In this document: positions 1 through 26,415 of the stretch, one piece after another
Layout: each line of letters opens with the position of its first letter
Numbering within the stretch: the stretch's first letter is position 1
Source of the DNA: Acanthamoeba lenticulata
Taxonomy: Eukaryota; Discosea; Longamoebia; Acanthamoebidae
Assembly (NCBI GenBank): GCA_002179805.1
Contig: NAVB01000136.1
Span: forward strand, 1 to 64,000
Length of the DNA stretch: 64,000 bases
Reading direction: 5' to 3'
Made by a program: the position numbers and the translations under genes
The notes under the pieces: model-generated
What the model was told of the DNA's origin: nothing
Databases searched by the model: none
The model's input: the letters and a program-made list of their open reading frames with translations, nothing else

Positions 1-3000
1 CATTTGTGTGAGTAAAGGGTGAGTTAACTTCCCCATGGGGCGTGGTTGGCGTCGTACGGGTTGGAAATCAGCACGTGAGGCGAGACCACGAGGTCCATCA
101 GGCGCGCCTGCGGCCCGCCGCACACAACCACATAGGGCACGCGTTCGCCGTAGCGCGGCTCGGCGCGCGGGTCGACGGCCATCTCCTTCTGGCACACAAG
201 CGCGGCTGGCGGCGCGGGCACCTTTGTGCTGCATGATCATCGGACTCGTCGTCAGACAACACGTTCTTTCATTTAGTGGCGACGAGGTGCTGAGGCCACA
301 AACCTGTAGGTGCCGAGCCTGACTTCCTTGGCAAAGATAAAGTCCTTGAGCGAGACGCGCCCTGCGGCGAGTTTAGTCCATTGCCGCTGTACAAAGGCCT
401 TGATCGTTGAGAGGTCGCCTTGCTCAAACAAGAGCCTGATGAAGCCGCCGTGATGATCAGCTCAGCCACACAACATGCTTGAGCCAAAGCATGAGTACCT
501 AAGGGATTTCTCGAGGATCTTGCTGACGGCGGGGCAGGTGTCGCGCCGCACGGTTTCAATGCCCTTGGCCTCGAACGTGGGCTCCTTCTGGTCTGCGCTC
601 TCGTACTTGTATCCCACGTAGCGCTGCATTCTCATCAGTCAGTCACTCCGGTTGTCATGCACAAACACAGAGAGTGTCGTGCACACACACCTTCTTGGCC
701 AGGAGGATGCACGGGTGGTAGACCTTCTCAAACTGCAGCGTCACTGGCCTGTGGACAAGAGAACATACAACAAATGTTAGCAGACGTTATGCCAAGTGCC
801 GAGGAGGGCCGGACCAGGGGTTGGCTTTGGTGACGGCCTCCGCGATCTCACGGCCCACTTTAAAGGCCTGGTCCCTCGTGGCTCCCGGTACGCACACAAA
901 CAGACTGACTCACAAGCAAGTAGAGTCAGAGTCGGCCTTGAGGCAAGCAAGCAGGTTGCCGCGGGATGGAAAGTCACCTGTCCGTGTCGCCATAGATGAC
1001 GTTGGCGCCCCACTTGCTGGTGTTGTTGACCAGCCGTATGGCGTTCTCGAGTGTCTCGCGCCCCGTTTGCACGATTGAATCGGCGATCTGCAGGCCGACC
1101 CGCAACACATAACGATCAGGTCTTGCTCACTGCTCCGTGAGGCTTGGCGGGATACGTACCTCAACGCAGGGCATGCGGCCTGAGAAATTGGCCGACGTGT
1201 AGCCGTAGGTCACGTTGGCGATCATCTTCAGGCCGTACTGCTGCGCGTTGAGCTTCTTGTACAGCAGCTGCAACAGGCAAACGTTGTGAGACGCAAGGTT
1301 CAGGTCCCATGAATCCGAAGTAGCGGTGCTCTATAGGATCTCGTCTACGAACCTTGTCGTTCTTTGCCAGCTTCATGGCGGCCTTGACGACGATGCGCGT
1401 CTCCAAAATTTCCCGCAGCAGGCGTGGCAACACGCCCTCGCGCACCTCTTTCGTCACGAACATGACCTCGTTGGGCGTCACTGTGCGTGTTTGCCCCAAT
1501 GATCAGCCTTGAGCCCACGCGCGAAGCTGTACAGGGAGCAGAGGGGATGGGTACCAAAGATGTTGTCTTGGAGGTGGGCCAGCAGGCCCTTTGGCAGCGT
1601 CAGGGACGATGTGCCGAGGGGCTTGCTTGTGTTCTTGTGATTGCGCAGCTTGCCCATGCACGTCGAATAGCTGCACACGCACATCACACCATCGGATTGG
1701 ACCGGCCCAGCTGTGAGGACCTTGCAGGACACCACCTCGGTGAAGGACGGACATACCAGTAGTTGTAGGCGATGACAATCGAGGGATAGAGCGACTGGAA
1801 GTCGAGCACGATCACAGGATCTGGATAGAACCGCGAGAGCGGTTCCATCACGAGCGGGATGCACTCGATTGCCGCCTGGGCCGCCACCTGCGGGTCAATG
1901 GCGTGGAAAAGTTAGAGAAAACGAAACCACCAATAATAAAAACAAAAATAATTGAGAAGAGAGCACGAACCTGTTGGCGGGATGGCGAGATGAGGACGTA
2001 GTTGTGCAGCTTTGTCAGGCGAATCATCATAGACTCCACCCGGTACTGCGAGCCACGGGAGAGGACCGAGAAGAAGTCGATCCCGTACACTCGCGCCATT
2101 TCACTGGTCCGCCAGCCACAACACGGGGCCACGTATCAGATTTGCCCTTTGTCCGTCCTTCCTTGGTGACAACCCCACATGGTGAAGGCAGGCACCTTGT
2201 GCGGCCGACGATGTCGAGCTGCGTGAGCATGTCGAGGTAGTGCTGCACGCGTTCGACGTAGTGCTGAAGCACACGCCACCTCTGCACGCCATTGTGGTGC
2301 TTGTACCATCCGGTCATCGTCGCGTACGAGTAGTACGGAATCCTGTGGGCACGCGAGGGTGAGTTCGTCAGTCACATTCAGGGCAGTCGTGAAGACTGCT
2401 TTGGACGAACCGCTTGTGAAGGACGTGGTAGGCCGTGTTCTGGTAGGAGTAAGAGGGCAGCCGTAGCTCCGACCGAAGGATGCGCCATAGGTTGAGAACG
2501 ATGCGGCCGGTGATGTGCACCCCGGACGAGTGCGAATAGCCCCACTCGTCCTGCTTTCGGTCAAAGTGGTTGACCCCGCCCATTGGGCCCGTCAAGTTCA
2601 TCCGCGACAACTCTTCACACAGGTTGAGCCCTAGGGCACGACGACGTTGGGAGTCAGCATCTTCTTGCCGCGCTGATCCAGAATCAGAGAGAGCGGCGTG
2701 AGTACTGAGAGCGTAGCCGCGTTCGATGATGTAGCCGAGGGAGGACATCTGGATCTCGTAGCCCACAAGGATGTCGGGGTCGATCTGCGAGACCAGCTGC
2801 GCAAAGGCCAGCAGCATCGCGCGCTCGTCCTTGAACACGTCGATGCGACAGTCTGCGGCGCGCAGGGCATGAGTGAGTATAACAGGCACGTCGAGCGTCC
2901 TCTTAGGCCACATACCGAGCCCGTGCGTGGTAAACAGGGCGTCCTCCGGCACGGTGACGAGTATGCCCAGCATCTCTCTGGTTAGCGCGTGGTGCGCACA

Positions 3001-6000
3001 TGGCATATCGCACATGGACAGTGAGTGGCAGGTAAAGGGAAACAAGGCCTTGGTCCTGGCGTACGAGTTGTCCTCGGGATCGTCGTCACGAATGCAGTAG
3101 AAAATGGCCGTCAAAGCATCCTGGGCCGGGTTGGGCCGCAGCTCGGCCCGCGTATTGACTGGCCCGTGCCCCACGATGAGAATATGGTACGAAATCAAGC
3201 TTCAAGGAGCATCACACAGACGCACGCACCGTGGATTTCGATGCTCATCAGCGTGACGTGCTGCTGCTCGACGGAGCCCTGCCCTGTTGTGCTGCTCGAC
3301 CTGAAGACAGGCCAAAGGAGATGCTGGCGCACCAATCATGGAATGCAAAACATAAAACTGAACAGCTGGTTACCTATCGCGCCGGAAGCCATTGCCGCTT
3401 ACGGCAAAGCCACAGGTGTCCCCCGGTGCCGGTGTGGGCCGCTCGATTTGCGAGCGATCCTCCTTGGTCGTAGACTGGGCGTTGTAGGCCGTCGCTGCCG
3501 CAGCTGTCACAGTCCAAATAAATGTAAATTGAATAATAATAATAAAAAAACAGCAATTAAATTGTATGCGCAGGCTTAGACAGTACCCTTGGGCATTGTA
3601 GCCGCGGTCATGGCCTGGCCATGGTTGCGTGCGATCTCTTCAAACCGTACTCGCTTGGGTTCTCGCTCTTCGTCTTCGTTCTTTGCCTGTTGGGCCTCGC
3701 TTGGATTGGTCATGATGACTTGGCCATCACCAGTCTGGACCACCTTCAAGTGTTTCCAGGTCTCAGTCGTCATGCGCTGTTGGTCCTGGCCGCGCTCCTT
3801 ACGCTTGCGCTCTGCGGCCTCGGCTGCAAGGTCGAGTTTCTCGTTGGCGGCAAACAGGTTCTCGATATCGAGCAGCCGCTGAACTTCTGCCCGTGTCGGC
3901 GGGGCGCTCACCGGTGTATAAAAGTGCCCAAGCTTCCGTCTGCGTTGCAGGCATTGAACAACACTCAGAACCTGGTCTCATAAGCAGTAAATATTCCTCC
4001 CTCGCAGCACGTACCTCTTGGAAGGCCGCGTCGGCCCTACGCCGGGGTCATTCGCGGCGCTGGTCGTAGTTGTGGTTGTCATCGTCGTCGTGGTGGTGGT
4101 GTGCGTCGGTGCTTGTGGAGAGTCGGCGACGCGGATGGGCATTCGTCGTGCTTGATCGCGCTTGACTTGGGCGTAGTGCGCAAGACCGAGTGGCCAGTCC
4201 CGCCTCTCCGCAAGTGGGCCACTTTCCACACCCTTTTCGTGTGTAAGGATCGACTTCTTAAAGAAGATAAGAACAGAAAAAAGCAGTACCCATTTCTGGG
4301 AGAGCTCGGCCGGATCAAACTCTTTGACGTCGGCCAGCTCGCCAACGGACAGTTTAAGCACCACGCCGCCGATGGTCTGTTCCCCGAAGATCGCGCGTCA
4401 GCATGCCTCCATTGTTGGGCAAGAAAGAAAGAACGCATGGTGAACCTTAGTCTGGCGCGGGGCGTCCTTGGCGTTGGAGAAGAAGGGCGGGTGGTAATCA
4501 AAAGGAAGCATGTTGCCATTGTTGTTCGCAAGCAGCTGCTTCACTTCGGCCCTCGTTGGCGGCGGCTGCAGCAACAAAACGAGTGTGAGGAATGGTGAAA
4601 GTGAACGTAAGTGGAAGCGAGCAAGTACGTGGGCCCATCGGTAAAGTCCAGGGCCAGCCGGAAGAGGGCTAGGCGAAGGCCCGACGGTGACGGGCTGGTC
4701 GAGTGGGTTGGCCGGAGCTGCAACGGGAGCAGGCAATGGAGCGTCGGGCTGCGCCATGGACTTGCTCATGTCGCCGACAACTTGCACTTCAGCATCGTCG
4801 ACGATGGAGATGAGCCGCGCTGGCGCGGGAGGGCCGTCCGCCAGTGGCGGAAGAAAAAGGATCATAGACTGTTGCTGGAGCGACTCTTCCTCGTCGAGCG
4901 GTGCTGCACTCGCATCAGGATATGGCGTGCACGGCGGAAGATGTACCTTAACAGGTCCCTGGATATCAAGTGGCTGGTCCGCCTCGGCGGGCTCGAAGGG
5001 AGTTGTGCTGGTCACGGTTGCCTCGCGCCTCCTCTTCATTCGCTCCCGTATGCAGCGAACTTGCGCAGCTTCGGCCTCATCTTCGCCTGGTGGCACGTTC
5101 TTGTTTGCCTCGGCCTCGCTATCGTCAACAGTGCTGGCCAGCGCGACCGCGGCCGCCGAGGGAGCTGTCGTCGGATCGATGACAAGCTCCTCTGAGAGCT
5201 CCACGACTGGACTCGCCGCCTCCTCGGCATGCGGTGGCGAAGGCTGGACAGCATTTGTGGGTTTGGTCGTATGGTTGGCCTCTGGCTCGTTGACCCTCCG
5301 CGGCGGTCGGATTGGCCGGACATCAGGGACGAGGTCCTTGGTCGGCGACTCGGCCGAGAGCAGCGGAAGCGACAAGAACTCGGACGCCATCGGCAGGCCA
5401 TCCTCGCGGCCGCCGCCAGTCCTTGGGCCAGCCCGGCTGTGACGTGACTTGGCCGTCTGGCGGCGGTGTCCGTCCTCGTCCTCGTGTTGAAAGTGGTGGT
5501 GTGGTGGCAGCACCACAGCGAGGGGCTCCTTGACGGCAAAGGGCTGTGAAGGGGCCGAGGATGGGGAAACCGGCGACCACAGTGAGAGTGAGAAGTGGAG
5601 CGACGGTGACGCTTCAAAGTCGTCCTGGACTCCTTGCGTCGTCGACTTCTGAGCAGGCGTCGTTGGGGCGTTCATGGCTGCGCAAGCGACGACAGCCTTG
5701 GCGCTTGGCGGCCGATCGTCGATCTGTTTCTCGGTGTCGTTTGAGTCTTCACTGTCCCCGACGGCTGACTGCGCGACGACGCCGCAGGTGATGGGCATCG
5801 AAGCGCAGCTGCCCAGCGAGACAGCAGTGAAGTGGTGCGTCGATGTGGACGCAGTGGCTGCAGGCTCGGCCATCGATTGTGCCAGACTTGGGGCCACCGA
5901 GCGTTCGGTCAGCTGCGTCTCCGAGATCACATCCAATCGTTCGTCGAGCTGCACTGGCGGCAGCCGCTTATGCTTCTTCGGTCGCTTCGTGGCGGTCTTC

Positions 6001-12994: not shown

Positions 12995-13375
12995 GTGCTT
13001 CCGCACTGCCAGCGTTGAGAGTGCCTTGAGAGCGCGCCGGGTTCATGTCTTTGGTCCCTTTTTCAACAAGAAACCCTGTTCTCTGTACGCGGCCCCGATC
13101 TTGTGCCGACTTGTCGGCCAACAGTTGGCTTGGGGAGAGAGTGGTTCCCTTGCGAGCTCACCGCGAGGCTCTTGTCGACCACATTTTGTAAAAGGGCCAA
13201 GAGAAACGTTCGTGTTGTGTTCTAGCCAGCACACGCCTCCCCACTTCAGTTTTCTTTCGATTTATTTGTTATGTCGACCCACACCGAATCGAGCGTTAAG
13301 AGGAGCGTTCGTCGCATTGTCAATTCGTGCATTCTTTCGCCCAACGAGTGCGGTTCTAGCTTAAACAGCAGCAAG
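12995..13375. other. Intergenic / 5' leader before aspartate aminotransferase
   Basis: This stretch holds the protease 3' UTR and the leader of the aminotransferase gene. An in-frame upstream ATG at 13271 with no intervening stop would add 35 residues rich in Ser and Arg/Lys to the aminotransferase. No other coding signal was found. Confidence 0.4.
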
Positions 13376-15027
<1,652 letters not shown>

Positions 15028-15169: not shown

Positions 15170-18100
15170 ATGAGCCTCTGCGGCCCAGTCGCCGTGCTGG
15201 CGATGCTGGCTCTACTGCTAGCCGCTGCCGAAGGGGCGGACTACACGCTCACCATCAAAAGCGTGTACACGTCGGGAAGTTGCAAGTATGCGAACCCCCT
15301 CGGGCTCTGTTGTTGTTGTTGTTTATCGTCAGCGCTGACTTGCTGACTTGTAAACACACAACTTACAGCTTCGATGTGGCAGCGAACGAAGAGTTTACTT
15401 GGCTCTTCGACATGGCGTCGCAGTCCAAGTGCATCAACTTCCAGGACATCGATGAGCACATCAACAGAGCAGTTACCTACACGATAGACTTCAGCACCAC
15501 CCGGACTTCAATGGACATGAACATGGATTTCTTCGAGAAGGACGGCTCCAACTTTTGCACACGTGAAGGAAGCGACGTGGCTAGTGATCGAGTGACCTTC
15601 ACGCGCACCTTCAACTTGGGTTCTCTGATCGAGAATGTGGCTTCGGACTGGGACGAGGCCCGATCGGCCCAAGGGTGCACCTTTGGCGCGCGAGGAGACA
15701 TCAAGAAGTGGCCCAGCCCCCCAGCAGCGGTGACGGTAAGGATTTTCCTTGTGGCTTCACTTGCCATCTCGCTCTAACGTTCAGACTCGTTGACAGCCTG
15801 GGGCTCCTCGGATCAGCAGCACGGCGTTGACGCTCGTAGGGACGGAACTTCAACTGGTGATCAACGGCAATGAGCTGGACCCCAACAGCAGTGAGGACCC
15901 GGTGGTGCAGATCTCGGGCGGAACGACGTCCAACTGCATCAGCACCACATTCACTGCCATCGGCAGCCGGATCACATGCACCATCACTCCCCCCGAAACT
16001 GACAAGGTGGCCAATATCGACATGCTGGTCCAGGTGCAGACCACGTATGGCCTGTCTCGGTTAGCCCGAGTCGACTTCCCCACGTGCTCGCCAGCCTGCT
16101 CGGTGAACGGCACTTGCTACTGGTCGAAGGATGTCAAGCGCACCGAGTGTGTATGTCGCAGCTTCCTCAACTACGGCGCACAGTGCCATCTCAGTACGGC
16201 GGCCTCTTCTTGTGTTGCTCTTACTTTCCTTTCTTTTCCTTCTTGAATTTCTCATCTTGTTTCCTCTTCATATGTTGTGGGTGATGTGCAGCATACCCGG
16301 ACGGCGAGCCTATCTTGTCGGCCATCTCGCCTATTGGAGGAGACTACACCCAGCAAATCGTGATTGGTGTCGCTGGTCGTGCATTTACCACCGACTCCAG
16401 CATCACCAGCGTCACTTGCGAACTCAGCTGGAGTGGGTCAAACCAGCGGTATGCATTTTATTCCATAAAAACAAGATGAAATTATATTTTTAATTCTTTG
16501 GCCCGTACAACGACAGGATATCGGCGGCGGGGGACCGCGTCGTAACGGAGCGCAATGTCGTGTGGAGTGGGCCGTTGCTCGCCTACGACAACCGACCCAT
16601 TCCACAGACGGACTCGCTGCAAGTGGCGGGCATGTGCGTCATTCCGGCCGGCACCTTCTCTCGTCCGAGGCCCGACACCAAGAACGCTCTCGTCACCCTC
16701 ATCTGGCGCCGGGGCGCCACTGGCCAAGTCATCGAGTCCCGCGACTCGCGCACCTTTCTCCTCTATGGTGCGTATGTGGTGCGATTCGAACTGTCCCCGC
16801 ACTATGTTGACCCCTCCGCCAACACAGGCCCGTTCGATCCCGCGAGCTCGACCGTCCGTGTGGTGACCAACCCGGCCGACACGGAGATGCGCGTGTTGCG
16901 TGACCAGTACCTGCGCGTGACGGTCATGGACGCCGACGGCAACAACCGTGTCGGTAGCGGAGACGAGGATCTCTTCTTCCTCGAGTGGTTCAACGGACCC
17001 TCCACACAACCACGGGTGCCGCTCAACACTCTTAGCCTCTTCTCACTGTGGCACATTGCTGACGGCGGCGTGGACGTGCAGTTTGGCATCCGAGGAGGCG
17101 ACACAAAGAGTTTCTCGTACTCGGCATGCCGCAGGCGGCCGGACGACACGATGTGCGCCTACTACGAGACTACTCAGTCGTTCGACTTTGGCGGTCAGTA
17201 CATGGCCAATGTATTCTACCCGGATCCGAACACGTTCGCCCTGGTGGCGATCAACAAGGGCGATGTCATCTTTGATGTCAAGGGCCTTGGCTCGGCCACC
17301 TTGCCCGTGCCTGCGCAGCAACCTTCCGGCATCGACTGGGCCGAGTCCCTCCGCTATCGCGAAGAGATCGACCTCTACGACAAGGGCCTTGCCCAGCTGG
17401 TGCGTTCGGCTCTCCAACCCAGAGAAACGTTTGCCCGCTTTGACGACCTTGAGCTCACCCTTGAGGCCGATCGTGCCGCAGATTTCGCCCAACACGGGCG
17501 CCCGGGACCGGACGAACGTGCTCGGTCCGCTCTTCAAGCGGTGGAAAGGCGGATGGTTTACTCAGCGACAGACCATCAGCCTTGGGTTCGAGACGGGCAT
17601 GTCGCGCGTTGCCTTTGGCTCGGTTCACATCATCCGCGACCAGGGCACGAGCACGCCCAACTTCTGCGACACGCAAACGGACGAGCTCGACCCGGGCCCG
17701 CTCACCAACCAGGTGGCGCCGTGGCAGCGGACGGGCAACGTACCCAATCGCTTCCCGATGTCCAGCCTCAACTTTGCCGATAGCGACTGCGTCACGTCGG
17801 TCACGGTCACCGTTCAGCTTAGGCATCTCAACGTCAACAGCGTGGGTCTGACCCTCATTCGCACGGGCCTAGCCGGCACAAGCCCACGCGCCAAGAATAT
17901 CACGACCTCTATCGTGCTCAAGACCGCCAATGTTGGTACGTCAATCAACCCTGATTTCTTTTGCCTCGCTCGCTGCGGCGATGACGGCCTGGCCAATTGA
18001 TTGACATACAACACACACACACACACAGAGGTCAGCCTGCCAGCGACAACGCTGCTGGTGTACAGCAACCTCAACGTGACCCAGCTGGCTCAGCTGCGGG

Positions 18101-21100
18101 GCCTCCCAGCTCGGGCCGACTGGGTGCTGGTCGTGACTTCACCGGTGAGACAGGGCCACCTCAAAGACTGGTACCTTTCCATCAGCTCCGAGTACTGCCT
18201 TCGCAGCGCTGTCGTGGACAATTCCGTGTGCGCCGAGGGCGGCGGCCAGCTGTACGCGCGAGCGGCCAACGTCGAGGACCGCATCCGGCTGGAGTGCCCG
18301 TCCGGCGGCGTCATTTCGTCCATCGTATGGGCCCGCTTTGGCAAGCTCGACGGCTCCTGCGAACAGGACAATGTGCGCGTGTACGACAACTGCGAGGCCA
18401 ACACGACCACCGTTGCGCGTCGCGTCGCGTCGGTGTGCGTCGGCCAGACGTCGTGCGAGCTGCTCGCGCTCGACACGCAGTTTGCCCAGGACATCGGCGA
18501 GCCGTACCTGTGCCCGGGTGAGCTGCCGCCCTGCCCGGACGACGTGTCCTTGCTCACGACCGAGGACAGTTCCTCGGTCCAGAGCCGCCGTTGGGCGGAG
18601 AAGGACGGCGACGGCAGCAACATTGCCGGCGAAAAGCACAAAAGGCAGCACAGCTCGAGTGAGCGCGCCCTGCCGTGGACCTACCCGGGCACCGAGGACC
18701 ACTACTACAAGACCGGCTACGTGCGCCACGCCATCGAGCCCCTCTTCAGGCAGCGGCGTACCAGCGACGCGCCGACGTGCACCTACAGCCAAACGCGCCC
18801 CAAGAAGGCCCTCATGGTCAAAGCTCTGTGCCAAGGTCCGTAGTCCATGCGCCAGGCTGCATGCCTCGTGTGTGGGCAGCATGTGTTGGCTGACTCGGTC
18901 ATGCGCGACATGACAGAGGCTGGTGCGGCCACCGTTTTCACGGATTTGGTGCCCAGTTCGAGGAAAATGTTGCTGGCCAGCGCGAGCGCCGATTTCGACA
19001 ATGACTGGAAGGATGAGACCATCACGCTGTTTGGCTACGTGGGCGGCTCACTTCATGCGGCCATCACCTACGTCCAGAACGGGCGTCCGGTAACTCAGAC
19101 CTATCGCAGCATCCGAGTCTCTGGCGTCGCCATCGTGCTGGGCGACCAGATCGAGGTCCAGACGGGCGACTTTGACGGCGATGGCTACCCGGAGCTGGTC
19201 TTTGCCTTCATCAACTCTGCGGGCGTGCTTCAGGCCTACCTGTGGGACTTGTCCATCAACAGCGCTGCCGTGTGGGGGGCTCGAGCCAAGACCTCACGGA
19301 CCAACTTGCAACCGTGCGGCTGCTTTGCCACGCAGGTGCCCATTCTCAGCCTCTTCAATCAGGTGACGACCGTGCGCGTGCCCGGGAGTCCGCGCTTCCC
19401 GGTTATCTTCAACTCGACCCGAATCGACTCCCAGGGCTTTTCTTTCTCCTTGTCCGCGGGGGATGTGGCTCTCTCGCTGCGGGACTACGTTCGCATTCAT
19501 CACCCTTTGTATCCTCTGACGGACGGTGTGCTGACGTCATCAACCATGTGCCCCAACGACACAGCTGGTGGTGTCCTGGATCGTAGATGCAAGCACGGTC
19601 TCGTGGCAGCTCTACGTGCAGGCGCCGAACCGCACGCTCATCCCAGCGACGGCCAGCCCCAACTCGCTGCGTTCCCTCAACCGGCCCCGAGCGGTTGCGG
19701 TCAATTTGGCCAACTACGAGGTACCCGCGGGCTGGTAAAGCTGGCCCTCGTCGATCTCTAACAGACACTGTGGACGCCCAGGGCTCGGGCACAAGCGAGC
19801 TGTCGCTGGGGGTCATCGACCGCCAGGGCGTGACTGTGTTCCTCTACTCGATCGACCAAGAGGACGACTTTAGCATGAAGCAGGAGAAGGTCATCACGGT
19901 CTACGACGCTAACACCAAGCCTGGTCTCTGGGGCGCTGACTCAGCGTCTTCCTATTCTCGCTCCAAGTAAGGACGGTCCCTTGCCCTGCTCATCATGCAC
20001 GTTTGCCTCATTATGATCTACACGATCATCTTCATTACTTTTGCCCAGTCTGCACATGGTCTCGGGCGATCTTGACGATGATGGAGACGCCGAGATCGTG
20101 GTGGGCTTCACCGCGCGGAGCCAAGCCTACCTGTACCGGATCGATGCACCTGGCTCTGGCACCAAGTGCCGCCGGCTGGACTGCATGGAGCTCTTCAACA
20201 AGCAGGCCTACACGCTCTCGCTGGGCTACACCAGCCCCGACGGCGTGCCGCTGCGGAGCCCCGAGCTCAAGCTGGCCATCGCCAACTTGGACGACAGCTA
20301 CGCCAATGAGCTGATCGTCGCCGCCGAGTACACCTCGACCCGCGACTCCACCGTGGCCAAGGTCATGCTGGCCAGCCTCACCGCGCAGCCCAACGTTGAC
20401 GGCCCCTTCAGCGTCAACGGACGGCACTGCTACAATGGCCCGTACTACCAGCTCGCTGAAGCCTTCGAGGAGTGGGTGGTCAACAACATGGCCCTCACGG
20501 TGGGCAACCTCTACGGCCTTGGCTTCCGCGTGGGCGAGCCCACCACGATCCGCTACGAGGGCGTACCCGACTTGGTGGCCGTCCTGAACGCGCCGCCGAC
20601 GCACTACGACGTCCTGGACGAGCAGGGCGAGGTGGTCGTGAACGCGGACACCTTCACGGGCTCGGGCTCGTTCACGTCGCTGTCCAACATCGAGGGCATC
20701 GTGTCATCCTTTGAAATCACCCGCGAGAAGGCGTCGGCCACGACCTCGACCCACGGCTTCCAGCTGGACTCGCGGATCGCGGTCGTGTTTGGCAACATGG
20801 ACCTCGCCTGGCAGACCTTCACCTCCAACACGGAGAACACGGGCTACGCCAACATAGAGCAGATCGCCGTGTCGCGGGACATGGTCGCGGCGGGCGACGA
20901 CGTCGTGCTGTACATCTCGACCGACAAGGACGTGTGGAAGTACCCCATCGTCGACCAGAGCGGGAATCAGGTGGGCTCGCTGGACATCGTGCTGTCGTCG
21001 AGCTGCGGCGAGAAGTGCGTCCAGAAGGGCGACGGCCGGGACCTGTGGTGGTTCACGCCGGACCACGAGCCCTTCAACATCCTCACCTACTCGTCCCGCG

Positions 21101-24100
21101 CGCCCAAGGACTTCAACCCGGTCAACCGCATCATGGTCGGCGAGAAGGTTACGCTCGGGCCCAACGCCCACGAGCAGTGGGTCGACCAGCAGTCGGGCAA
21201 ATCGCAGAACAAAGTCAGCCTCAACCACACGGCCGACCGGACGGGCAAGGGCGGCTCGGCCGGCGCCAGCGTATCCGTCGACTTCACCTTCTCGGGTGCG
21301 TTCATGGGCGTCGGCCCGCAGATCAAGATGCCGCTGGGCGTGAACGTCGTCGCAGGCTACACGGGTCGGACCGAGACATCGGACCAGGCCCTGGCCACGC
21401 AGTCCCAGTCGGCCTCCATCAACCGCGACGTCTCCGTGCACAGCTTCCTGGAGGCCATCTCGCCGCAGTACGCCTACAAGGTGCAGCCCTTTGTCTACAT
21501 GGCCAGGACGGGCAGCGGGCAGGAGTACCTCAAGGTGGACTACTCCGCCGAGCCGGGCTATTACCCGGGCGTGTCGACCTGGTGGCAGCGCACGTACAAC
21601 AAGCCTGACCCGACGTTCAACATGCCCTGGTGGTGGACGAACTTCAAGCGGGACCGGACCATGCTCACCAAGGAGATCGTCTCGACGCCGCTCTTCCCTC
21701 GGCTGGGCGAAGTCGTGCAGGTCACGGTGACGGTCCGCAACAAGGCCCTCGTGCAGGCCCAGGACGTGAGTCTGGCCCTGTGGCGCGGCAGCCCCGAGAA
21801 CTGCCTCGACCTCACCTGCCTCTTCATCGGCCGCACCCTCATCGGCGCGACCAGAGTCAACATCATCCCAGCGCAGGGCCAGCGCGACGTGGCGTTCCTG
21901 TTCAAGTACGACGGCACCAACAATATCCACGCGACGCTCGACGACAACAACGACATCGAGGAGATGCACGAGGACAACAACGAGGCCTACAGCCTCATGT
22001 TCTACAACCTGCGGGATGAGGGCTACACCATCCAGACCATCCGCTTGGACAAGACCCTCACGCTCAGCCCCGTCATGGGCGGGCCGGGCAAGCGCTGGGT
22101 CAAGGGCTATGACATCTCGGCCACGGTGCTGGGCGACACCTTCAACCGGCAGAACGTGCTGGTCCAATTCTGGCACGGCCAGGTGGGCGGCTCGGGCCGT
22201 CTCATCGCCACGATCAACGTCCCGCGCATCCGGGGCTCGGTGGCGACCACGACGCGCTACACGCTGAGCGCCTACTGGGACACGAGCAACCCGAGCTACT
22301 ACGGGCCGCAGGAGCTCCACGCGGTCATCCTGCACGCTGGCTTCGACACCACGTCGGCCAACGTCATCTCGAGCGTGCATCAGACGGTCACCATCGGGTG
22401 CTATGGCGACGTCGACGTGTGCGGCGTGTGCGGCGGCGACAACAAGGCCTGCATGGGCTGCAACGGCGTCCCGCTGTCGGGCAAGACCGTGGACATGTGC
22501 GGCAAGTGCGGCGGCGACGGCTCCACGTGCTGCATCCGCAAGCCCTCGCAGGCCACCGTGCAGTATGTGCGGCTGCAGCTCAACAGCTACGGCGGCACGA
22601 AGCGCATCAAGGTGGGCGACATGGTCGTGTGGGAGAACCTCCTCGACTGGAATGTCAAGGTCGAGGGCGGGGTGTACGACTACGTGGGCGCTCCGGCGTT
22701 TGAGCTGCGGACGCTCCAGTTCAAGGGCTTCCCCATCCAGGACCAGGTGCCCTTGATGACATTGGACGACGCCACGGTCAGCGCCTACGTGCAGCAGTAC
22801 CTGGCCATGGCCACCCTGAAGGACCACCTCGAGTCGGCCTCCGACCCCCTCACGCCCGACACGCTGGGTCCCCAGTTCCTCAGGCGAGACGACCACCGCG
22901 ACCATCTCTCGGCCGACATGCCCGAGGACTTTTACAACATGGGCCTCGCGCGCTTCCCGGGCTGGCATGTCGATGGGCCCACCGTGGGCCTCGCTGAGGA
23001 CCGCGGGCGCGGTCAGGTGACCCTCCGACGACGCGAGGCTGACGAAGCTGACGACGAAGATGACGGCGACAACGATTACGTGCACGCTGAAGAGGTCATG
23101 GAGGGTGTCTGCTGCGCCGAGCCCGAGCTCGACGATGACGCCAGCGGGTCCAACACTGCCGTGCCCAAGCCGTATACGCTCGGCCATGGCAACACGGAGC
23201 TCGACAAGCACCTCCAGGCAGTGCTTCAGAAGCGCGTCAAGTCACGACCGGTCCACGTGTCGACAGACGAGATGAAGGGCCGCACGTCGGTCGATGTTCG
23301 CGGCGGACCAAGGCCAGCGTTCTCGCTGCGGGCGGTCGCGCTCTTGCTCTTGAAGCACCAGAAGGAGCAACAGGACTTCCTCGCCAGCATCAACGACACC
23401 GCGGTTGTGGACCGGTGGGACGTTCAGGCATTCAGCGAGCGCAAGCGCGAGGCCGCACGTATGCTCTATGACCCCGAGCTGCACGAGTCTGAGAGCGATC
23501 CGGCCCGTCCGCTCCACGTCCGCTGTCTGTGTCCGCCGCGGCACCGTGTCCGGGCTGACGCCCCGACCCCAGGCGGCTCTGGTGGCAGCTCTACGCCGGG
23601 CGGCTCCAGCCCCGGTACGGCGTCCACGATCATGCATCGTGCACACGTTTGTTTGATGTCGCCAGAGCCGAGCTCTGACTGACACATCACCACGCAGGGA
23701 TCTACGTGTGGCATGACGCCCAAAATCCGGCGATCCACGGCACCATTATCGTGGACCCGTCGAACCTGGTCAAGGACGTGTGTGGCGTGTGCGGGGGCAA
23801 CGGCACGTCGTGCCTCGACTGCAAGGGCACGCCGTTTGGCAACGCGCGGCGCGACGTGTGTGGCGTGTGCTACGATCCGCTGGTGGACAGCTACGACGCG
23901 GAGCGGGCCAAGGACTGCGCTGGCGTGTGCAATGGCACGGCTGTCATCGACGACTGCGGCTACTGCGTGGGCGGCTCGACCGGCCGCGTGCCGGGCTTTG
24001 CCAAGGACTGCCGTAACGTCTGCAATGGGGACACGCCCGACCTGTGCGGCGTGTGCGGCGCCACCGAGGCTACCCACCCGCAGCTGCTCGACTGCGCGGG

Positions 24101-26415
24101 CCAGTGCTTCGGCCTCCGCGTCCGCAACTCGTGCGGCTACTGCGTGGGCGGCTCGACCGGTCTGGACCTGAACTACGGGAAGGACTGCGCCGGTGTGTGC
24201 AACGGCACGGCAGTGCGCGACTGTAACAACCAGTGCCAGGGCACCGCCCGTGTCGACTGCGCCGGCGTGTGCGGTGGCGCTGCGCGCACCAACCAGTGCT
24301 CACGTTGCATCGGCGGTTCCACTGGCCTTGACGTACGTCCGGACCCTTGGTGGAATGTGTGCAATGCAAGTTCCTAACTCGTTTGATGCGGGCTTGTAGG
24401 ACGCGATGACCAAGACCTGCGACGGCATCTGTGCGATCCGGCCTGACCTCGTGTGCCGTGGCAATATGTCCCGGCGTGCCCTTCCGGCCGAGGCCGAGCT
24501 GCAGCTTTCGTCCGAAGTCGCTGCCGACAGTGATGACGCTCCCGTGGCGAGCGACTTGGCCGAGCGCGTCACCCAGTGCGCTGGTGGCGCGTTTGATTGC
24601 CGCGGCATGTGTAACGGCACAGCGCGCGTAGACAAGCAGAGCACATGCTGCGCCGCGACGGACCTCGACTGCGCCAACCTGTGCCGCGGCTCGGCGAGGC
24701 TCGACTGCGAGGTGTGCGTGGGCGGTTCGTCGGGCCGGGAGCCGCGGAGCGTGCGCGACTGCCTGGGCGTGTGCAACGGTACCGCGGTGTACAACCCATG
24801 CGGCGTGTGCGTCGTCCCGGAGCGGTATTACAACGGAACGGGCTATCGCGTGGACTGCAACAACGTGTGCAACGGTTCGGCTTACATCGACGACTGCGGC
24901 CGCTGCGTCGAGGGCACCACGAGCAGGCTGCCCAACCTCGACAAGGACTGCTTGGGCAAATGCAACGGCTCGGCCTTGGTGGATGACTGCGGTGTGTGCT
25001 ACACGCCCGGCGGCAACCACACGCCCAACGCCGACAAGGACTGCGCGGACGTGTGCGGCGGCTTGGCCGTGGTCGACGACTGCGGCCAATGCGCGCTGGG
25101 CACGACGAGGCGCGAACTCAACGCCGACAAGGACTGCGCTGGCCAGTGCTTTGGCCAGCACATCATCACCGACCCGGCCTGCTCGTGCCCGCCCGGGCAG
25201 CTGGACCGCTGCTTCGTGTGCGGCGGCAACAACAGCCAGTGCGCCGGGTGCGACGGGCTGCCCTGGTCGGGCAAGGTGCGGGACTACTGCGGCGTGTGCG
25301 GCGGCAACAACACGGACTGCTGCTTTCTGCCGTTCGCGCAGACGACGGCCACCATTCGGGACTTTGAGACGATCATCCTGCGCAACACGCTCGAGACCGG
25401 CGAGACGCTGGCCATCACCAACCTCCACACGGGCCAGGCCTACTCGCTCATCATGTACCGCCTCGACGTGCCGGCCGCCATCGCGCGCGTCAAGCAGATC
25501 CAGACGCGCTGGGACTACGCGGCGCTGCGGCCCGGCAACACGCTGCGCATCGTCGTGTCCGAGCCGGGCACCTACCGCATCACCTCGGTCGAGAGCTCGT
25601 CGGTGAGCTTCGATCTGGACGTCGTCTACAACGCCAAGCAGCCGGACGTCTGCGGCCGCTGCGTGTACCCGCCCTCGAGCACCGACTTCATCCTGTCGAC
25701 AACCGTTGCCAACAACGCCTCGACGTCGGACACGCGCAACGCGAGCGTCGTCGAGTATGCCCACTGCTGCGCGATCATGCCCAGCGACGACGTGCACGAG
25801 TGGTTCGAGACCGTGTACTACCACGACCCGCGCCGCCCGGACGAGGTCACGCGCGTGGTCAACCACACGCGGCGCTACCGGCCAGCAGCCATCGAGCACT
25901 TGATCCGGATCGTGGAGCCTCACGCCATCGCGCGCACCTCGTGGTGGAACGGCAAGCGGCTCGAAGTGGGCGATGTGCTCATCTTTGAAAACGCCGACTC
26001 GGTCGACCATGTGCTGTCCTTCACCGGGCCACAGCCCATGGCCGACATCTACCTGGAGCGCGGCTCGCTGGTCCGCACGCCGGCGTTCGTCAAGCCGGGC
26101 GCCTACCGGGTGGAGTCCAACCGCAACATGATCAACACCACGTTTGCTGTCGAGTTCGCCTTCACATGCTCGCGCTACCTCGCCGAGACCCCGGCGCCCA
26201 AGCCCGACGACGACACGGACCTCATCATCGGGCTGTCGGTCTCGCTCGGCGTTCCCTTCGTGGGGCTCATCGCGCTGGCCCTCCTCGTCGCGGCCGTTCT
26301 TGGCCTCCTTGCTCTTCGCCGAAAGCTCGCCCACAGCAACAACCCGTTTGCCACACCCTACGACCCGGGCTCCACGATTCGTCCGGCCGCAAGCGCAAAG
26401 GCCCCACAGGGCTAA
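15170..26415 (+). CDS. Giant multidomain type I membrane glycoprotein (lectin, FG-GAP-like, Cys-rich repeats)
   Basis: Predicted cell-surface protein of over 3,000 residues; function unknown, adhesion or phagocytic receptor inferred. A signal peptide (MSLCGPVAVLAMLALLLAAA) starts it. In order: IPT/TIG-like Ig fold (15830-16060), EGF-like module (CSPACSVNGTCYW, near 16090), a beta-rich region, a SUEL/galactose-binding-lectin domain (18270-18510; RLECPSGGVISSIVWARFGK), FG-GAP-like repeats (GDFDGDGYPELVF near 19170, GDLDDDGDAEIVVGF near 20060), a CARDB-like domain (21690-22000), ADAMTS-like CGVCGGD cysteines (22420), a cupredoxin-like segment (22560-22700), an acidic stretch, tandem DCAGVCNGTA-type Cys-rich repeats (23780-25320), a further cupredoxin-like segment (25880-26160), one membrane helix (26220-26310) and a short tail with NNPF. 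Introns at 15280, 15740, 16200, 16450, 17940, 18840, 19500, 19730, 19970, 23620 and 24335 join in frame. An apparent one-base frameshift lies near 17460. Confidence 0.85.
17440..17500 (+). other. Apparent frameshift inside the giant membrane protein gene
   Basis: Up to about 17455 the coding frame reads FDDLELTL; downstream the clearly coding frame is the next one, reading PQISPNTGARDRTNVLGP and continuing for about 450 bases. No GT..AG intron fits between them. One extra base in the CCCTTGAGG stretch would explain it. It may be a sequencing or assembly error, or a real allele defect. Confidence 0.6.
23780..25330 (+). repeat. Tandem Cys-rich repeats carrying N-glycosylation sequons
   Basis: Within the giant membrane protein a unit of roughly 25-35 residues recurs with the pattern (K/R)DCAGVCNGTAVxDDCGxCVGGSTG. 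Most copies place an Asn-Gly-Ser/Thr sequon immediately after a cysteine. Copies begin near 23910, 23985, 24060, 24180, 24580, 24755, 24850, 24940 and 25030. CGVCGGN(N/G)T blocks bracket the array near 23790 and 25290. Similar DC..C repeats occur in secreted proteins of several microbial lineages. Confidence 0.75.

What the first reader, a model, noticed from the sequence alone, without database searches (positions are those of the whole stretch)
15170..26415. Giant lectin/FG-GAP/Cys-rich membrane protein: candidate undescribed surface receptor
One gene combines, in a single predicted type I membrane protein, an IPT-like fold, an EGF-like module, a SUEL lectin domain, FG-GAP-like repeats, a CARDB-like domain, ADAMTS-like and tandem Cys-rich repeats, cupredoxin-like folds and a membrane helix. 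Each part is recognisable, but I know of no named protein with this order. The size, the signal peptide and the many sequons suggest a cell-surface molecule that could bind glycans on prey or other cells.
Basis: partly seen in the sequence, partly recalled or inferred. Interest (0 to 1): 0.75.

Follow-up and report, generated by a model that had tools for sequence, protein, structure and literature searches.

The report
Amoeba surface giant with bacterial core
An Acanthamoeba gene predicted to encode a giant single-pass membrane protein holds, in its middle, some 940 residues that align throughout with the main body of a family of bacterial proteins that are predicted to be secreted, so the amoeba likely captured a bacterial protein and likely uses it to grip or recognise prey.

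Summary
The gene is real. It has 13 predicted exons (15170-26415) and 3,436 codons, with a signal peptide, one membrane helix and a 32-residue tail. Two paralogs carry everything from the SUEL domain to the tail in one open frame of 2,670 and 2,654 codons, so it is one gene. It belongs to a multigene family of Acanthamoeba and is under purifying selection.

FG-GAP, CARDB and ADAMTS-like are supported through relatives. IPT, EGF and cupredoxin stay below every threshold. An amoeba-only profile finds them back in 9 of 10 bacterial genomes. Six amoeba rows form one clade, so one capture is the simplest history.

The SUEL domain has lost two of four sugar contacts, so glycan binding by it is doubtful. 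Clarke et al. 2013 already listed Acanthamoeba SUEL proteins as recognition candidates; the architecture and embedded bacterial core appear new. Function (adhesion/recognition) is inferred.

The parts
15170..26415 (+). whole gene, 13 predicted exons, 3,436 codons
   Evidence: single gene shown by the paralog frames
15170..15235 (+). signal peptide (residues 1-22)
   Evidence: hydrophobicity scan; cleavage point by eye
15797..16078 (+). IPT/TIG-like stretch (residues 162-255), below Pfam cut-off
   Evidence: PF01833 E 0.47; 45-52% identical in subfamily A
16079..16192 (+). EGF-like Cys stretch (256-293), below Pfam cut-off
   Evidence: PF23106 E 0.38
16292..18273 (+). residues 294-870 (with introns 16449, 17400, 17936): no known domain found; by eye a second IPT-like start and a P/Homo-B-like end, neither confirmed
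18289..18492 (+). SUEL / rhamnose-binding-lectin domain (879-946)
   Evidence: PF02140 over cut-off; contact residues Tyr63 and Lys120 replaced
18973..22008 (+). bacterial-type core, residues 1080-2018, collinear with positions 101-973 of 1,075 of the bacterial family profile
   Evidence: 258.9 bits
18973..20469 (+). FG-GAP beta-propeller part of the core (1080-1505)
   Evidence: PF13517/PF01839 weak; two of three bacterial homologues over cut-off; PDB propellers (a secreted esterase, integrin alpha chains) matched by the family profile
20485..21669 (+). unnamed domain with the LNAPPTHYD motif (1511-1905); its second part, 1626-1905, is the most conserved large block among subfamily A paralogs (77-81%)
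   Evidence: (no Pfam family)
21670..22008 (+). CARDB domain (1906-2018)
22015..22404 (+). second CARDB-like beta domain (2021-2150)
   Evidence: 66-73% identical in subfamily A; assignment by eye
22405..22530 (+). ADAMTS-like CGVCGG module 1 (2151-2192)
   Evidence: ADAMTS5/13 rows, E 0.8-1, weak; paralogs 81-86%
22531..23614 (+). possible cupredoxin-like half followed by a poorly conserved insert (2193-2553)
   Evidence: fold assignment by eye only
23766..25194 (+). tandem Cys-rich DC.G.C repeats (2577-3030; intron 24333-24399)
   Evidence: matches to four bacterial proteins with a T9SS tail domain and to two eukaryotic ones
25195..25338 (+). ADAMTS-like CGVCGG module 2 (3031-3078)
   Evidence: profile hit to ADAMTS5 9rwm E 3.1e-4
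25339..26169 (+). two beta domains, cupredoxin-like by eye (3079-3180, 3251-3355)
   Evidence: PF02298 E 0.025, below cut-off; 3079-3180 is 75-76% identical in subfamily A
26221..26316 (+). predicted transmembrane helix (3373-3404)
26317..26412 (+). short basic tail, predicted cytosolic, with an NPF tripeptide (3405-3436)
   Evidence: tails differ between subfamilies

Best explanation
The gene is predicted to make a 3,436-residue single-pass membrane protein whose residues 1080-2018 align throughout with the main body (profile positions 101-973 of 1,075) of a bacterial protein family, several members of which carry type IX secretion tails, and it likely works as an adhesion and recognition receptor on the amoeba surface or in the phagosome. 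Shown: one gene, a paralog family with the same order, purifying selection on this copy, the SUEL domain, and collinear homology of the core to stand-alone bacterial proteins. Inferred from these: an ancestor of Acanthamoeba took up one bacterial secreted FG-GAP/CARDB protein, the unit lost its own signal and sorting tail, and it came to lie between a eukaryotic-style N-terminal half (IPT-like, EGF-like, SUEL) and a Cys-rich, membrane-anchored stalk. Inferred mechanism: the Cys-rich stalk holds the head off the membrane; the propeller, the unnamed domain and the N-terminal half meet ligands on bacteria or surfaces; the short tail, with an NPF tripeptide in this copy, would link it to uptake (that NPF binds EH domains is recalled). 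The ligand is unknown and need not be a glycan.
For: Gene model and topology. One open frame from SUEL to tail in C904 (2,670 codons) and C602 (2,654). Same order in four loci and most of it in a fifth. Purifying selection: 28 synonymous against 4 non-synonymous differences over 654 codons between window and C656, dN/dS 0.043. Bacterial family: six hits with the amoeba profile, E 3.6e-19 to 6.1e-7; 55 loci in GTDB genomes; profile of 45 bacterial rows aligns to 1080-2018 with 258.9 bits; the amoeba-only profile finds a match in 9 of 10 bacterial genomes, E 7.1e-23 to 7.8e-10. T9SS tail: in the precomputed domains of 5 of the 6 and by NCBIfam in 3 of 4 scanned. Six amoeba rows form one clade, SH-aLRT 100. 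Clarke et al. name 11 SUEL proteins, about half with EGF, as candidate recognition receptors, and report bacterial-like integrin-domain adhesion proteins (PMC4053784, passages).
Against: No transcript, localisation or binding data were available. The tree is a quick one without bootstrap; the amoeba stem is long (2.78) and the donor lineage is not resolved. The direction of transfer rests on distribution in capped searches: a GTDB pattern scan with the amoeba alignment found nothing, and the protein search scored only the 7,995 candidates that share most words. In one bacterial genome of ten the amoeba profile found no match. The SUEL contact residues are degenerate. In subfamily B the selection signal is weak: dN/dS 0.65 between C101 and C1787 and 0.54 between C101 and C429. 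The tails of the paralogs differ, so a shared uptake signal is not evident.
Confidence: 0.55

Rival explanations
1. It is a structural glycocalyx or stage-specific coat protein: the Cys-rich, glycosylated ectodomain builds the surface layer and carries no specific recognition function.
For: 25 sequons and 123 cysteines; SUEL sugar site degenerate; short tails.
Against: Besides the two ADAMTS-like modules and one beta domain of the stalk, the most conserved parts are in the head: the core block 1626-1905, CARDB and SUEL; the Cys-rich repeats are less conserved at 64-70%. A plain coat protein would not obviously need a conserved head.
Confidence: 0.25
2. The core is a membrane-acting module of the aerolysin-like kind, tethered to the amoeba membrane and acting on engulfed prey.
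For: In the model of the bacterial homologue (pLDDT 77.5) most residues of two stretches, within 59-110 and 227-268, have pLDDT under 50; they are S/T/G/N-rich with alternating hydrophobicity. Among the 50 Foldseek rows shown are four of botulinum haemagglutinin HA-70/HA3, one proaerolysin and one C. perfringens enterotoxin (that these share a fold is recalled).
Against: Those rows have probability 0.14-0.21 and TM about 0.1; CARDB strands in the same protein alternate as strongly; no Pfam pore-former was listed.
Confidence: 0.08
3. The core was not transferred from bacteria but is an old shared domain set lost in most eukaryotes, or passed from an amoeba to bacteria.
For: The tree is unrooted and the amoeba stem is long; the window gene has introns in the propeller part of the core.
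Against: 55 bacterial loci across several phyla.
Confidence: 0.1
4. The reading is a chimera of two or more neighbouring genes or a decayed copy.
For: The window copy lacks a stretch present in frame in its haplotig and in the paralogs near intron 23615.
Against: Single open frames in C904 and C602; dN/dS 0.043 between haplotigs.
Confidence: 0.02

Closest known systems
Acanthamoeba castellanii SUEL-domain proteins (Clarke et al. 2013, PMC4053784)
   Same: SUEL domain, EGF in about half, proposed as pattern-recognition receptors; 11 of the 12 SUEL matches in this genome lie at loci of this family, alleles and fragments counted
   Different: The passages read do not describe the FG-GAP/CARDB core, the Cys-rich stalk or the membrane anchor; the supplement was not read
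Unnamed bacterial FG-GAP / LNAPPTHYD / CARDB proteins (e.g. P0025; loci L053-L107)
   Same: Propeller, unnamed domain and CARDB in the same order over profile positions 101-973
   Different: Stand-alone, profile of 1,075 positions, several with T9SS tail; no SUEL or Cys-rich stalk in the proteins scanned
Integrin alpha chains
   Same: FG-GAP beta-propeller; the family profile matches integrin alpha-4/V/5 at E 0.001-0.3, a secreted esterase better at 2.5e-9
   Different: No integrin leg domain was listed by Pfam; rest of the architecture unlike
Thecamonas protein AMSG_11705 (P0005), named guanylate cyclase domain protein
   Same: Cys-rich CGVCGG repeats
   Different: A cyclase domain (PF00211) on the same chain; no match to the core
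Latrophilin / EVA-1 type receptor RBL domains
   Same: RBL (SUEL) domain in a membrane receptor, often with replaced sugar contacts (PMC2430599, passages and section 7)
   Different: Animal receptors of other build
ADAMTS proteases
   Same: CGVCGG Cys module
   Different: No protease or thrombospondin domain listed

Membership tests
SUEL / rhamnose-binding lectin | Pfam SUEL profile over its cut-off | tested here: met
   31.7 bits against 31.4; 38.1 bits in the genome search
SUEL / rhamnose-binding lectin | Sugar-contact residues Glu42, Tyr63, Gly117, Lys120 (latrophilin-1 numbering) | tested here: not met
   Window: Phe at Tyr63, Gly kept, Pro at Lys120, Glu42 not placeable; subfamily B keeps Tyr63 but has Ser at 117. 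Placed on latrophilin by motif, by eye, from a recalled sequence
Bacterial FG-GAP/LNAPPTHYD/CARDB family | Collinear propeller, unnamed domain and CARDB | tested here: met
   Profile positions 101-973 on residues 1080-2018; reverse search 9 of 10 genomes
Bacterial FG-GAP/LNAPPTHYD/CARDB family | C-terminal T9SS sorting tail | tested here: not met
   Match stops at position 973 of 1,075; no such tail listed for the pieces scanned. It contains the unit and is not a member as a whole protein
Integrin alpha | Seven-bladed FG-GAP propeller | tested here: inconclusive
   Repeats below cut-off in the window; family profile matches integrins weakly; blades not counted
Integrin alpha | Pairing with a beta subunit | not testable with these tools
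   No interaction data
ADAMTS | Metalloprotease and thrombospondin repeats | tested here: not met
   No such Pfam match in the four pieces scanned, which cover nearly the whole protein
Cupredoxin | Cupredoxin profile and copper ligands | tested here: inconclusive
   PF02298 E 0.025, 1 of 7 members; Cys ligand not seen by eye
Aerolysin-like pore formers | Aerolysin fold with insertable hairpin | tested here: inconclusive
   Low-probability Foldseek rows only; the unnamed domain was not modelled alone
Type I membrane protein | Signal peptide, single helix near the C-terminus, basic tail | tested here: met
   Predicted from a hydrophobicity scan of the sequence; no dedicated predictor was run
Acanthamoeba mannose-binding protein | Sequence relation to MBP | not tested
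   No MBP sequence was compared

The most novel reading that the evidence does not exclude
Acanthamoeba swallowed a whole bacterial weapon or adhesin and mounted it on its own membrane: the captured core, with its two S/T-rich alternating stretches, is a membrane-acting module that damages the envelope of engulfed prey, so a predator kills bacteria with a protein taken from bacteria.
Probability: 0.07. Interest if true: 0.88.

Novelty: new variant of a known kind. Interest (0 to 1): 0.58.

Why it matters
How free-living amoebae recognise bacteria is largely open; the passages seen of the review PMC11377244 list SUEL proteins among the candidates without their build. This work gives them an anatomy: a family of giant, predicted membrane-anchored proteins with the body of a bacterial protein built in. 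It also makes an apparently undescribed bacterial family with a strongly conserved motif (LNAPPTHYD) a testable object, since its members are stand-alone proteins of about 1,070 residues. If the core binds bacterial surfaces, a predator would be recognising prey with a part taken from bacteria.

Tried and rejected
Separate genes: rejected by the single frames of two paralogs. Frameshift near 17460: explained by an 82-base intron 17400-17481, whose joined residues run on in the four paralog rows compared. The first gene-finder path used less likely introns in the 5' third; replaced by the model from splice signals, looked at again. The first structure job on the amoeba segment (8 rows, pLDDT 41.2) was too poor and was not searched. 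The second model is of the bacterial homologue L060 with 54 rows, not of the window itself. Foldseek against viral proteins gave nothing convincing. Viral contigs: no relative of the core with amoeba or bacterial queries. GTDB scan with the amoeba alignment: 23 stretches matched, none a relative; with the bacterial alignment 55 loci. N-terminal half: one relative only (P0032). Full-length search: six hits, all with their best stretches on the Cys-rich repeats. P/Homo-B-like reading of residues 735-850: no Pfam support. Bacterial neighbours: of 8 neighbours of 6 loci, TPR families occur at two loci and nothing else is shared. NCBIfam: no match over cut-off in the four exon pieces scanned. The hairpin idea for the unnamed domain: alternation is not specific. 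Papers: ACA1_047930 in no main text of the library; SUEL with FG-GAP in none; CARDB with FG-GAP and 'sorting domain-containing protein' in none; Acanthamoeba with FG-GAP in two, of which one (medusavirus, one passage) lists an FG-GAP virion protein and the other was seen in the listing only. Further searches seen as listings; PMC10880599 was seen in passages.

Rows dropped: the bacterial profile used 45 rows (41 of 55 loci, those with frames of 1,040 aa or more, plus 4 of 6 proteins); the tree added 6 of 12 amoeba rows; the structure alignment used 40 of 55 loci, 7 proteins and 7 amoeba pieces; the reverse search used 10 of 55 loci's genomes.


Full report
What the window is. The window is contig C122 of a 48.5 Mb genome in 1,825 contigs. 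A profilin read from the same genome is nearest to profilins II and I in the PDB; that these entries are from Acanthamoeba castellanii is my recall, and the match is close but not identical. The genome is therefore most likely an Acanthamoeba other than the one those profilins came from.

The gene. Splice signals give 13 exons from 15170 to 26415, 12 GT-AG introns of 61-98 bases and 3,436 codons without a stop. The product has a signal peptide, 25 sequons, 123 cysteines, one hydrophobic helix at 3373-3404 and a basic tail of 32 residues. No transcript data were available. The strongest proof that it is one gene comes from paralogs: in C904 and C602 the SUEL motif, the NAPPTH motif, the CGVCGG modules and the last tail residues lie in single open frames of 2,670 and 2,654 codons. 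At most window junctions the spliced residues run straight into the paralog residues.

The family. Searches of the own genome with three exons find the haplotig C656 (98% identical) and further loci. After modelling, one subfamily holds the window/C656, C904/C602 (94%), C310 and C266, the last three loci at 60-64% to the window; a second holds C101/C1787 (94%), C429, C374 and C458/C1709 at 39-50% over what is held. Several of these are cut by contig ends. Between the window and C656, 654 codons of the core show 28 synonymous and 4 non-synonymous differences, dN/dS 0.043; C904 against C602 gives 0.082. Between paralogs of different loci it is 0.34-0.57. In subfamily B it is high even between near copies: C101 against C1787 0.65 (8 synonymous, 17 non-synonymous), C101 against C429 0.54. 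So the window's gene is kept by selection, while some subfamily B copies may be relaxed or diversifying. Eleven of the 12 SUEL matches in the genome lie at loci of this family, alleles and fragments counted.

Domains. SUEL is just over its Pfam cut-off; FG-GAP, IPT and CARDB are below. ADAMTS-like modules are supported by a profile match to ADAMTS5 at E 3.1e-4. EGF and cupredoxin labels find no support above a cut-off. By block, the parts most alike in subfamily A (C904, C602, C310, C266 to the window) are the ADAMTS-like modules (81-86%), 1626-1905 (77-81%), SUEL (73-78%), the beta domain 3079-3180 (75-76%) and CARDB (72-77%); the N-terminal 138 residues (29-36%) and the insert 2246-2545 (36-46%) vary most.

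The bacterial core. A profile of residues 1500-2153 from eight rows of this genome found 25 proteins: 17 without an informative name at 51-78% identity, two from A. castellanii Neff (P0010, ACA1_047930; P0026, a pro-kumamolisin model with 84 residues of the core), and six of 860-1,081 residues at 22-26% identity over 72-77% of the query. Of the six, two are named as Bacteroidota T9SS proteins, and five carry PF18962, the T9SS tail, in their precomputed domains. Their alignment shares LNAPPTHYD, HEvgNILSY, DPaf.LPW and E.HE.NN. With these six as query, 63 stretches of GTDB genomes matched the patterns, 56 encode relatives, 55 distinct loci: mostly Bacteroidota, Ignavibacteria, KSB1 and Calditrichota, with Balneolota, Rhodothermales, two Verrucomicrobia, one Neomarinimicrobiota and one Chloroflexaceae record. 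The same scan with the amoeba alignment had found none. A profile of 45 bacterial rows aligns from position 101 to 973 of 1,075 to residues 1080-2018 of the window protein as one domain, 258.9 bits; in subfamily B the match breaks into pieces. What is missing from the amoeba is the bacterial N-terminus and the sorting tail; NCBIfam sees that tail in three of four bacterial proteins scanned. In the reverse direction, the amoeba-only profile finds matches in 9 of 10 bacterial genomes, in open frames of 1,083-1,136 aa, at E 7.1e-23 to 7.8e-10; in the tenth it finds none. The tree of 51 rows puts the six amoeba rows on one branch (SH-aLRT 100) with a stem of 2.78; it is a quick tree, unrooted, with long bacterial rows, and does not name the donor. 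One capture from bacteria is the simplest history; it is inferred, not shown.

The Cys-rich stalk. Residues 2580-3104 match P0001, P0002, P0003 and P0006, all with a T9SS tail in their precomputed domains, and the region also matches two eukaryotic proteins, P0004 and P0005. So a second part of the chain also resembles secreted bacterial proteins, though such repeats may be convergent.

Does it bind sugar? The latrophilin-1 study (passages; section 7 read) names Glu42, Tyr63, Gly117 and Lys120 as contacts and argues that RBL domains in membrane receptors recognise non-carbohydrate ligands. In the window and its subfamily the sequence reads ARFGK and CPGELP, so by motif Tyr63 is Phe and Lys120 is Pro. 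The SUEL domain is therefore a poor basis for glycan binding.

What is in print. Clarke et al. 2013 (passages) report 11 SUEL proteins in A. castellanii, about half with EGF, absent from other Amoebozoa, as candidate recognition receptors, and mention bacterial-like integrin and haemagglutinin domain adhesion proteins. A 2024 review repeats the SUEL count (passages). No paper in the library holds SUEL with FG-GAP, and none names ACA1_047930. Supplements could not be read, so the individual genes may be listed there.

Verdict. The finding is real and larger than described: a family, with a likely captured bacterial core. Function is inferred from architecture. The kind (giant protist adhesion/recognition protein) is known; this make-up is a new variant.

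Noticed in passing
window 23600-23700; C656 (L029/L030): Near intron 23615 the haplotig copy is about 400 bases longer, in frame, than the window copy and carries a stretch that the other subfamily A paralogs also have; an allelic difference or an assembly collapse.
   Followed up: partly
P0026 (A. castellanii Neff): A protein named pro-kumamolisin ends with 84 residues 60% identical to residues 1741-1824 of this core: a gene-model fusion or a real recombination.
   Followed up: no
P0013, P0014, P0016-P0021, P0023; C266: Many unnamed relatives start or stop between about residues 1776 and 1790, and C266 is split near residue 1779, which suggests a common exon boundary inside the core.
   Followed up: no
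G000:C458:17913-18149: The strongest SUEL match of the genome (56.9 bits) lies here, apart from the family locus on the same contig.
   Followed up: no
loci L053-L107: An apparently undescribed bacterial family of stand-alone FG-GAP/LNAPPTHYD/CARDB proteins, several with T9SS tails.
   Followed up: partly
C101, C1787, C429 (dN/dS): Near copies of subfamily B differ more at protein than at silent sites would suggest under constraint (dN/dS 0.54-0.65): relaxed or diversifying.
   Followed up: no
P0005 (Thecamonas trahens AMSG_11705): The same CGVCGG Cys-rich repeats sit on a chain with a guanylate cyclase domain.
   Followed up: no
window 13226-15027 and 26626 onward: By eye from the translations: an aspartate aminotransferase gene upstream, ending 142 bases before the start codon, and a SNF2-like helicase downstream; neither was scanned.
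   Followed up: no
tails: Tails differ: NPF in the window and C656...HAPSMYPL or close to it in C904, C602, C310 and C266, Ser/Arg-rich in C429 and C374; C1787 is cut off, and the doubtful C101 model end also shows NPF. This would suit different sorting of alike ectodomains.
   Followed up: no
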